Positions 24,869 to 26,028 of a DNA stretch of 64,000 nt are shown one piece after another. The notes beneath the pieces were generated by a model. The model did no database searches, was not told the DNA's origin, and worked only from the letters and a program-made list of their open reading frames with translations. Made by a program: the position numbers and the translations under genes. This stretch comes from Isoetes taiwanensis (taxonomy: Eukaryota > Streptophyta > Lycopodiopsida > Isoetales > Isoetaceae), in NCBI GenBank assembly GCA_021234155.1, contig JAJEKV010000249.1, forward strand, positions 372,001 to 436,000, written 5' to 3'. Each line of letters starts with the position of its first letter. Within the stretch, counting starts at the first letter, position 1.

Positions 24869-26028
24869 TTAGGGCCTCTCTTTGCGGATCCTCCGCGCCA
24901 AATGCAGGTCCGTGGGCATAACAGTTACCCGCTTGGCGTGGATGGTGCAAAGATTTCCCTCCTCAAAGAGCTGGATTAGCTCTGCCTCTGATGCTTCTTG
25001 CAGGGCCCGGGTGGTTAGAGGTGTGACCCTGTAATCAGTCCGGAACTCCTACATCACTTCGCAAAGAAGGCGTTCGAATGGCGCCTTCCTTATTAGGAGA
25101 TTAGTGCACTGTTGAAAGTGCCTAATCTCCCTGAACACCCGAGCGTGCCGGGAGTTAGGTCCGTGGTGGACCTTCTTCGGTTTCTCCGGCCTGGGTGGCG
25201 GCGGCTTGGGCTGTTTCTTCGGCCGCCGCCCCTTCACGAACTTCTCCACGTTCTGCTTGCGGTACCAATCATTATACCTCATCCAGCAACGGAGGTACTC
25301 CTGGTACACCTTCATTATGCGCTTGAACTCGCGATCCTGGCGGAGGGCGAATTTGCGCTCGCCCACCTTCTGCTTCTTCACTACCTTAGGTGGCTTGGGC
25401 CACTTAGGGTAGGGTGGGCATGCGTTGGGGTCTGAAGTTCCCCAACGTCCTGCTCGTGCTCCTCCTCTGCATTCTCCTCTTCTTCCTCTCCATCTCCTTC
25501 CTCCTCTTCATCATCCGCCTCCTCGCGAGGGCGAGGTTCTTCAATAGTGACTGTCCCACGAGGTCTATCCCTCCTCGCCTTCTTCCTCCGCTCTTTCTCC
25601 TTCAGCTCCCTCTCTCTTTTCTTCCTGGCCGCCATTTCTTCTGGCCACTCCTTCACCTTCTCCTTCCCCTTCTTCTTTTTGCTAGGAGGGGCTGCCTGCT
25701 GGTCCGGCTGGGGCTGGGTCTGCTGCTGCTGCTCTTCGTGGGTCTCCTCCTCTCGGCGGTCTTCCTCCTGATCTGACAGGCGGCCAAAGTGACGGGTCTC
25801 ATCTGTTCGCTGCGTGCCTCCCGACGAAGAACTGCTGCTGCTGCTGCTGCTGGGGGCCTCCTCCTGGGAGATGTGGAAGGTCTCGTCAGTGGAAGACGAC
25901 GCCTCCTCCTCTGGTCTCGGCCGGAGGTGCTCTGGGATTTGTTTGCCGTGGCCTCCAGCTGTTGCTGCCGCCATCGAAGGTGAGCTCCTTGGGCCAGTCT
26001 TCCTATAGGTTTGCTTGGTTCTTGCCAT
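24869..26028 (-). pseudogene. Histone H3-like gene of element A
   Basis: Starts at 26028 with M-ARTKQTYRKTG, matching the H3 tail at residues 1-6, 8 and 9 (A7 replaced by Y, S10 by T). Then come a poly-Ser run, a basic KKKKGKEKVKEW stretch, long Glu-rich tracts and a proline-rich linker, in all about 290 residues before the fold. The histone fold (25135-24869) begins FREIRHFQQCTNLLIRKAPF and, after one in-frame TAG, continues EFRTDYRV, RALQEASEAELIQLFEEGNL, CTIHAKRVTVMPTDLHLARR and stops at 24869. It aligns without gaps to H3 49-135, about 60 percent identical by hand count against remembered plant H3. Loop 1 has canonical H3 length, so it is not CENH3-like there. H113, D123 and R128/R129 are kept; K56 is Q, K79 is R, K122 is T. 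Damage: one frameshift (near 25400) and the TAG at the position of H3 Q76. Confidence 0.9.

What the first reader, a model, noticed from the sequence alone, without database searches (positions are those of the whole stretch)
24869..26028. A Ty3/gypsy retrotransposon that encodes a histone H3-like protein
Between PBS and gag of element A lies a gene with an H3 N-terminal tail (ARTKQT, then RK at 8-9) and, after a long charged linker, a complete H3 histone fold aligning gap-free to residues 49-135. The same gene sits at the same place in element B (32518-33594), and its C-terminal half in element D (45754-45961). Three copies in two LTR families, diverged but still H3-like, argue for an inherited component and against one chance capture. 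Gene capture by LTR elements is known; I know of no retrotransposon that carries a core histone (from memory, no search run).
Basis: partly seen in the sequence, partly recalled or inferred. Interest (0 to 1): 0.96.

Follow-up and report, generated by a model that had tools for sequence, protein, structure and literature searches.

The report
Retrotransposons carrying their own histone H3
A large family of jumping genes in a plant-type genome carries, just ahead of its normal genes, a long-established gene for a version of histone H3, the protein that DNA is wound on; no such element turned up in the papers searched, and it suggests that a genomic parasite makes its own chromatin part.

Summary
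Element A (minus strand, 15424-28232) and element B (plus, 30310-43351) are chromoviruses (Ty3/gypsy) with 1.6-kb LTRs, target-site duplications, PBS, gag, pol and chromodomain. Between PBS and gag each has a gene starting MARTKQTYRK and ending in a complete H3 fold; element D keeps the C-terminal half. All three window copies are broken. The same 1.66-Gb genome holds intact relatives: the 10-residue tail occurs exactly 275 times (reversed control 0). With one natural 364-aa open frame as query, 68 of 113 listed matches are full length without a stop. Twenty fetched copies of a second type, picked for long frames, have the H3 fold behind a different N-terminal domain; 19 of 20 have gag or RT downstream. 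H4, the control, has 69 first-look candidates against 8705 for the core-histone family. The fold is under purifying selection and keeps DNA-contact, H4-facing and H3-H3' residues; the tail region evolves faster. The 20 second-type H3s form one clade beside host H3, suggesting one old capture. Likely function: a nucleosomal H3 variant with a replaced or lengthened tail that alters chromatin in the element's favour; this is inferred. Ten literature searches listed no precedent.

The parts
15424..28232 (-). Element A, complete chromovirus insertion with 5-bp target duplication ACAGC
   Evidence: LTR pairs and flanks; LTR K2P 0.023
26597..28232 (-). A 5' LTR (TGTGACG...CGTCACA), 1636 bp
26584..26595 (-). 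A primer binding site TGGTATCAGAGC (initiator-Met type, name recalled)
24869..26028 (-). A H3-like gene: tail MARTKQTYRK, charged linker, H3 fold; one frame change near 25381-25405 and one in-frame stop at 25049-25051
24872..25174 (-). H3 fold part of A (H3 residues about 37-135)
22955..23941 (-). A ORF2, accessory gene between H3 and gag, no Pfam family over its cut-off
22420..23046 (-). A ORF3, continuation of the ORF2 gene in another frame (one frame of 460-502 codons in L012, L014, L017, L022, L024)
17921..21993 (-). A gag, protease, RT, integrase and chromodomain in several open pieces (start of the stretch approximate)
15424..17047 (-). A 3' LTR, 1624 bp
30310..43351 (+). Element B, complete chromovirus insertion with target duplication AAATT
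   Evidence: LTR K2P 0.087
32518..33594 (+). B H3-like gene, decayed by several frameshifts, same place as in A
34112..35815 (+). B ORF2 (34112-35116) and ORF3 (35276-35815)
36424..36957 (+). B gag (PF03732 1.6e-17)
38002..38880 (+). B reverse transcriptase (PF00078 1.2e-36)
40378..40860 (+). B integrase C-terminus with chromodomain (PF00385 1e-11); two of the three aromatic cage residues missing, judged by eye
   Evidence: cage positions after PMC3350952, PMC6317226
43895..56500 (+). Element D, insertion of another LTR family with target duplication GACCT; of A's proteins only the H3 piece and one weak ORF3 match (E 0.003, opposite strand) were found
   Evidence: LTR K2P 0.089
45759..45959 (+). 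D: C-terminal half of an H3 fold just after the PBS

Best explanation
A lineage of Ty3/gypsy chromoviruses captured a host histone H3 gene long ago and has kept it as a separate accessory gene between PBS and gag. Shown by computation: place, large copy number, open frames, purifying selection, and a conserved nucleosomal core with a changed front end. Inferred: the protein pairs with host H4, enters nucleosomes as an H3 variant, and puts an element-specific N-terminal part (a charged linker behind ARTKQTYRK in the A type, the fast-evolving X domain in the other type) where the H3 tail would be. The most likely benefit is against silencing: nucleosomes with this H3 lack the normal K9/K27 tail context that plant heterochromatin is written on and read from, so new copies or their target regions stay expressible.
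For: Place and context: 3 of 3 window elements whose 5' part lies in the window. Of 20 fetched copies, 20 have the open H3 frame, 14 the PBS upstream, 18 a gag match, 15 an RT match, and 19 gag or RT downstream. Selection: A against B fold 38+47 codons, 19+24.5 synonymous to 3+19.5 nonsynonymous, with gag 105 to 57 in 225 codons as yardstick. Nine X-type pairs with X dS<0.6: fold 136 to 22, X 327 to 236 (pairs not independent). 68 of 113 listed A-type matches full length and open at 76-100% identity. Core kept: R69, R72, R83, C110, H113, K115, R116, T118, D123, L126, R129 and I130 in 20 of 20 X-type copies, R49 and R63 in 19 of 20; AlphaFold and Foldseek give nucleosomal H3 for the A part. Tail changed: by my choice of start, X-type copies begin M(P/S)RFKLT, ME..K(Q/G)V, MANTKSA or MARTKGT; in three of 20 no start was seen. 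The A type keeps ARTKQTYRK with A7 replaced by Y; H3 K56 is Q in A and M in L041, K79 is R in both. H3 only: H4 has 69 candidates.
Against: No transcript, protein or chromatin data. The A type keeps K4 and K9 exactly, which plain tail loss does not predict. The fetched X-type copies were chosen for long frames and high score. Against one natural A-type frame (L041), all 13 other A-type sequences have uncorrected fold pN/pS below 1, but only 6 of 13 are below 0.3 and four are near 0.7; several of these are visibly decayed. The A copy itself has lost R72 and K122. The A fold is only 57% identical to plant H3 (52 of 91), so it may have a different role from the X-type fold.
Confidence: 0.45

Rival explanations
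1. Integration targeting: the histone is laid down at certain places and its tail or X domain tethers the integration complex, possibly through the integrase chromodomain.
For: The elements carry a chromodomain of type II pattern, lacking two aromatic cage residues (by eye); the partner of such chromodomains is unknown (PMC3350952, PMC6317226, passages seen). The A-type tail ARTKQTYRK is kept exactly in 275 copies, as a ligand would be.
Against: No binding shown. X-type elements with a similar chromodomain (about 74% identical to that of B in L021) have no such tail. Other plant chromoviruses have type II chromodomains, and the passages seen name no histone gene in them.
Confidence: 0.25
2. 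The protein packs the element's own cDNA or helps carry it into the nucleus (chaperone and importin contacts of H3), without a role in host chromatin.
For: DNA-contact arginines kept; long basic and acidic linker in the A type.
Against: Would not need the H3-H3' four-helix residues and H4 face to be kept as strictly as they are; retroelement cDNA normally meets histones only in the nucleus (general knowledge).
Confidence: 0.12
3. A decoy: the H3-like protein ties up H4, histone chaperones or tail readers so that silencing complexes are titrated away.
For: ARTK start with altered residue 7, and positions 86, 87 and 89 changed in 20 of 20 X-type copies (chaperone role of these positions recalled).
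Against: A decoy need not keep the DNA contacts.
Confidence: 0.1
4. A passenger gene fragment, captured by chance and drifting.
For: All three window copies are broken; 11 of 12 A-type loci fetched by their tail have no single frame from tail to fold; 30 of 113 listed matches contain stops.
Against: 68 of 113 listed matches open at full length; fold dN/dS well below 1; 32 different synonymous spellings of the same ten residues among the listed tails.
Confidence: 0.02

Closest known systems
Plant chromoviruses (Ty3/gypsy with integrase chromodomain; Tekay, Reina, Galadriel, CRM, Tcn1)
   Same: LTR ends, PBS, gag, PR, RT, RNase H, integrase and chromodomain; B RT 51-78% identical to the 120 listed of 7972 hits, the named ones largely plants
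   Different: Extra 5' module: H3-like gene and ORF2 between PBS and gag. Clade within chromoviruses not tested.
Plant LTR elements with additional ORFs (Retand, Grande, env-like, orchid Gypsy AlkB; PMC7264820, PMC9289625)
   Same: Separate accessory gene; the orchid AlkB domain is likewise homologous to a host protein (outline and abstract)
   Different: The word histone does not occur in PMC7264820. PMC9289625 screened 121 angiosperm genomes and reports 15 uncommon domains; the word histone occurs twice, not as a finding (supplement not seen).
Viral histones of large DNA viruses and bracovirus H4 (PMC9145170)
   Same: Mobile or viral genome codes a core histone; bracovirus H4 also has an extended tail and a single host-like fold
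   Different: Those are DNA viruses. The words retrotranspos- and retrovir- do not occur in the review. Ours is a single H3 in a retroelement of high copy number.
CENH3 (centromeric H3)
   Same: Long divergent N-terminal part; the A type shares EIRHFQ..TNLLI with Arabidopsis CENH3 (sequence recalled)
   Different: No longer loop 1, H3-type C-terminus; host H3 beside the 20 X-type folds in the tree, A itself on a long unresolved branch

Membership tests
Chromovirus (Ty3/gypsy) | Paired LTRs with short target-site duplication and PBS | tested here: met
   A, B, D: LTR pairs and 5-bp duplications; of five X-type copies with both LTRs compared, an exact duplication was seen only in L014 (GTGGC)
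Chromovirus (Ty3/gypsy) | gag and pol with protease, RT, RNase H, integrase | tested here: met
   Pfam on one open frame of L014 and on window pieces
Chromovirus (Ty3/gypsy) | Chromodomain at the integrase C-terminus | tested here: met
   PF00385 1e-11 in B; nine copies read, some of them with stops
Histone H3 | H3 histone fold by profile and structure | tested here: met
Histone H3 | Canonical N-terminal tail directly joined to the fold | tested here: not met
   A type: ARTKQTYRK, then a linker of about 250 aa; X type: other starts and an X domain
Histone H3 | Assembles with H4 into nucleosomes | not testable with these tools
   Interface residues kept, no experiment
CENH3 | Lengthened loop 1 and CENH3-type fold | tested here: not met
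   Ungapped against H3 through loop 1; tree with one recalled CENH3
Viral histone doublet | Two histone folds in one chain | tested here: not met
   One PF00125 stretch per protein in the two proteins scanned
Passenger gene capture | No selection after capture | tested here: not met

The most novel reading that the evidence does not exclude
The retroelement runs a private chromatin: its own H3 variant marks element copies or target sites, and the integrase chromodomain of the same element, whose ligand is unknown, reads that histone, so that writing, marking and targeting form one closed loop within a selfish element.
Probability: 0.12. Interest if true: 0.97.

Novelty: new variant of a known kind. 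Interest (0 to 1): 0.93.

Why it matters
Core histones are host property in cells; DNA viruses are the known exceptions. A retrotransposon family that keeps an H3 gene under purifying selection in very many copies would mean that a selfish element can supply a building block of host chromatin. It offers a direct handle on two open questions: how retroelements resist heterochromatin, and what type II chromodomains of plant chromoviruses bind. It also warns that H3-like gene counts in such genomes can be mostly transposon.

Tried and rejected
ORF2 of A had no homolog at E<=0.001 among the candidates from 5.8 billion proteins. The H3 search, whose length limits shut out ordinary H3, found 76 long H3-like proteins; none has the A-type PEHLRP or YNDWYRKQN motif, and two have KAPKVVKR, which resembles KPPKVVKK. 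The only viral-contig hit of the A piece (L001) lies among genes that look like phage structural genes by eye, taken as chance. Four long H3 proteins gave nothing in viral contigs, so whether they are mobile is open. AlphaFold of ORF3 was useless, pLDDT 36. X domain and ORF2 show no relation (hhalign probability 0.2%). CENH3 origin considered because of EIRHFQ..TNLLI, rejected on loop length and tree. Literature: ten searches, one of them on viral histones, listed no paper that names a histone gene in a retrotransposon; open-licence PMC only. Seen: passages of PMC7264820, PMC6338049, PMC9145170, PMC11222145, PMC6317226, PMC3350952, PMC9289625 (the last also abstract and outline); the rest search listings.

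Errors of my own notes: note 3 says 13 of 20 PBS; the output gives 14 of 20.

Full report
What is there. Elements A (15424-28232, minus), B (30310-43351, plus) and D (43895-56500, plus) are complete LTR insertions with TGTGACG starts and GTCACA-type ends (B's 5' LTR end is altered), PBS TGGTATCAGAGC (one base missing in B) and 5-bp target duplications ACAGC, AAATT and GACCT. LTR K2P distances are 0.023, 0.087 and 0.089. A and B carry gag, protease, RT, integrase and a chromodomain. Between PBS and gag of A lies, on the minus strand, a gene that starts MARTKQTYRK and ends in an H3 fold aligning without gaps with H3. B has the same gene at the same distance from the PBS (about 570 bp in both), and D only the C-terminal half. 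All three are broken: A by one frame change and one stop, B by several frameshifts, D by loss of the front half.

More than chance. PDB sequence matches reach 1.3e-18 and Pfam histone 1.3e-16. An HMM built from those of the 76 database hits that fill the fold hits five frames of 1603 in the window, all in these three places, at 2.4e-23 to 1.2e-6; the sixth is at 0.76, and 20 shuffled windows give none at 1e-3. A predicted structure of the A part (stop read as a residue) has the H3 helices (mean pLDDT 78.5, pTM 0.43), and the 50 PDB matches shown are chains of nucleosome entries, best E 1e-8.

The family in the host genome. The genome (1.658 Gb, 1110 contigs; window = C390:372001-436000) gives 8705 first-look candidates for PF00125, of which the best 150 were scored. 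The eight top loci fetched are canonical host H3 (L002-L009). I fetched 20 of the lower-ranked places, chosen for long frames; all 20 have an open frame of 337-494 codons that ends in an H3 fold. In front of the fold is a domain of about 200 residues, here called X, without a Pfam match in the two proteins scanned. Context: PBS upstream in 14 of 20, LTR end directly before it in 12 of 20, gag match downstream in 18 of 20, RT in 15 of 20, gag or RT in 19 of 20; L013 has neither within the stretch. For five copies the LTRs were compared: K2P 0.035-0.077, one of them on 355 bp only; an exact target duplication was seen in one of the five. The X domain as query has 2706 first-look candidates, 150 scored. 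An H4 query, the control, has 69 first-look candidates and 43 matches, 16 of them full length at 99-100% identity. So the amplification is of H3 and not of histones at large. First-look counts are loose and are not copy numbers.

The A type. The exact ten-residue tail MARTKQTYRK, searched as degenerate DNA, occurs at 275 places (146 + 129), the reversed pattern at 0; the listed sites use 32 synonymous spellings (typed from the list and checked). The pattern admits only exact tails, so this count alone is no test of selection. Of 12 loci fetched, one (L041) has an uninterrupted natural frame of 364 codons; in the other 11 no single frame runs from tail to fold. With it as query, 22104 first-look candidates and 112 scored gave 113 listed rows; 68 rows span residues 1-364 without a stop at 76-100% identity, and 83 rows have no stop.

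Selection. A against B, codons next to gaps and stops dropped: tail 43 codons 19.5 synonymous to 20.5 nonsynonymous, linker 101 codons 37.5 to 66.5, stretch before the fold 64 codons 20 to 26, first part of the fold 38 codons 19 to 3, second part 47 codons 24.5 to 19.5, gag 225 codons 105 to 57. Synonymous sites are near saturation, so ratios are rough. Among X-type copies the nine pairs with X dS below 0.6 give fold 136 to 22 and X 327 to 236; pairs share sequences. Between families (first six pairs) the fold is 85-93% identical with synonymous sites saturated in five of six; X is 35-41%, ORF2 44-57%, gag 95-97% identical, and RT 93-95% in the three pairs where it could be compared. Four closer pairs were also run; in two of them gag, read from broken frames, was only 75-77% identical. 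Against L041, all 13 other A-type sequences have uncorrected fold pN/pS below 1, 6 of 13 below 0.3, four near 0.7; several of the latter have short broken frames. Synonymous divergence is higher in the H3 fold than in RT in the three pairs that can be compared (pS 0.84-0.85 against 0.46-0.49; gag 0.47-0.76), which suggests that 5' modules and pol have been exchanged between families.

Origin. In a quick tree of 57 folds (99 columns, few for so many rows) the 20 X-type H3s are one clade (SH-aLRT 96) beside the host H3 (92). A sits on a long branch; a tree with A inside the clade is not rejected (p-AU 0.65), which does not prove it. T107A is shared by 20 of 20 X-type copies and I124L by 17.

How it may work. 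R69, R72, R83, K115 and R116 (DNA contacts) and C110, H113, D123, L126 and I130 (H3-H3' and H4 faces) are kept in 20 of 20 X-type copies, R49 and R63 in 19 of 20. In the A type K56 is Q or M and K79 is R; the decayed copy A has also lost R72 and K122 (roles of residues recalled). This pattern fits a protein that still has to fit in a nucleosome while its tail region is free to change. From this I infer a nucleosomal H3 variant with an element-specific front end; anti-silencing is my first choice, integration targeting my second. The chromodomain of the elements lacks two of the three cage residues by eye, the type II pattern, whose partner is unknown (PMC3350952 and PMC6317226, passages). That leaves open the bold reading that it recognises the element's own histone.

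Known or new. Accessory genes in plant LTR elements are known (PMC7264820, PMC9289625). The latter screened 121 angiosperm genomes, and its main text does not name a histone among the domains found. Core histones in DNA viruses are known (PMC9145170), where the words retrotransposon and retrovirus do not occur. Ten literature searches listed no histone gene in a retrotransposon (named under Tried and rejected). I file it as a chromovirus with a new accessory gene, a new variant of a known kind, and as an H3-fold protein that is not a canonical H3 because its tail is not that of H3.

Noticed in passing
22420-23941 (-) and 34112-35815 (+): A second accessory gene (ORF2/ORF3, one frame of 460-502 codons in five fetched copies) between H3 and gag, without a Pfam family over its cut-off and, for ORF2, without a homolog found among 5.8 billion proteins; more synonymous than nonsynonymous change between A and B.
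   Followed up: partly
L015:5612-6127, L026:5698-6207: A further small open frame (about 170 codons) between ORF2 and gag, alike in several copies; no Pfam match for the L015 one.
   Followed up: no
24179-24660: Three G+C-rich repeats at 200-bp spacing between the H3 gene and ORF2 of element A, 74-88% alike.
   Followed up: no
45418-54989: Element D has no detectable gag or pol relative of A; apart from a weak chance-like ORF3 match it keeps only the H3 remnant, so it looks like a non-autonomous or replaced interior.
   Followed up: partly
L012, L014, L026: H3 fold far more diverged at synonymous sites than RT of the same elements: possible exchange of 5' modules between families.
   Followed up: partly
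P0019, P0020, P0024, P0027, P0036, P0039, P0071: Long H3-like proteins with AKTKQT, TRTKKT or other tails, some in clusters of 13 to 31 sequences (P0024, P0027, P0036, P0039), from unnamed sources; other mobile H3 carriers may exist.
   Followed up: partly
11849-12415 (-): Cysteine-rich open frame that recalls the C-terminus of a LINE reverse transcriptase (recall only).
   Followed up: no
63124-63323: TCTAT tandem array.
   Followed up: no
7325-7664: Inverted repeat with 140-nt arms, 87% complementary, 60 nt apart.
   Followed up: no
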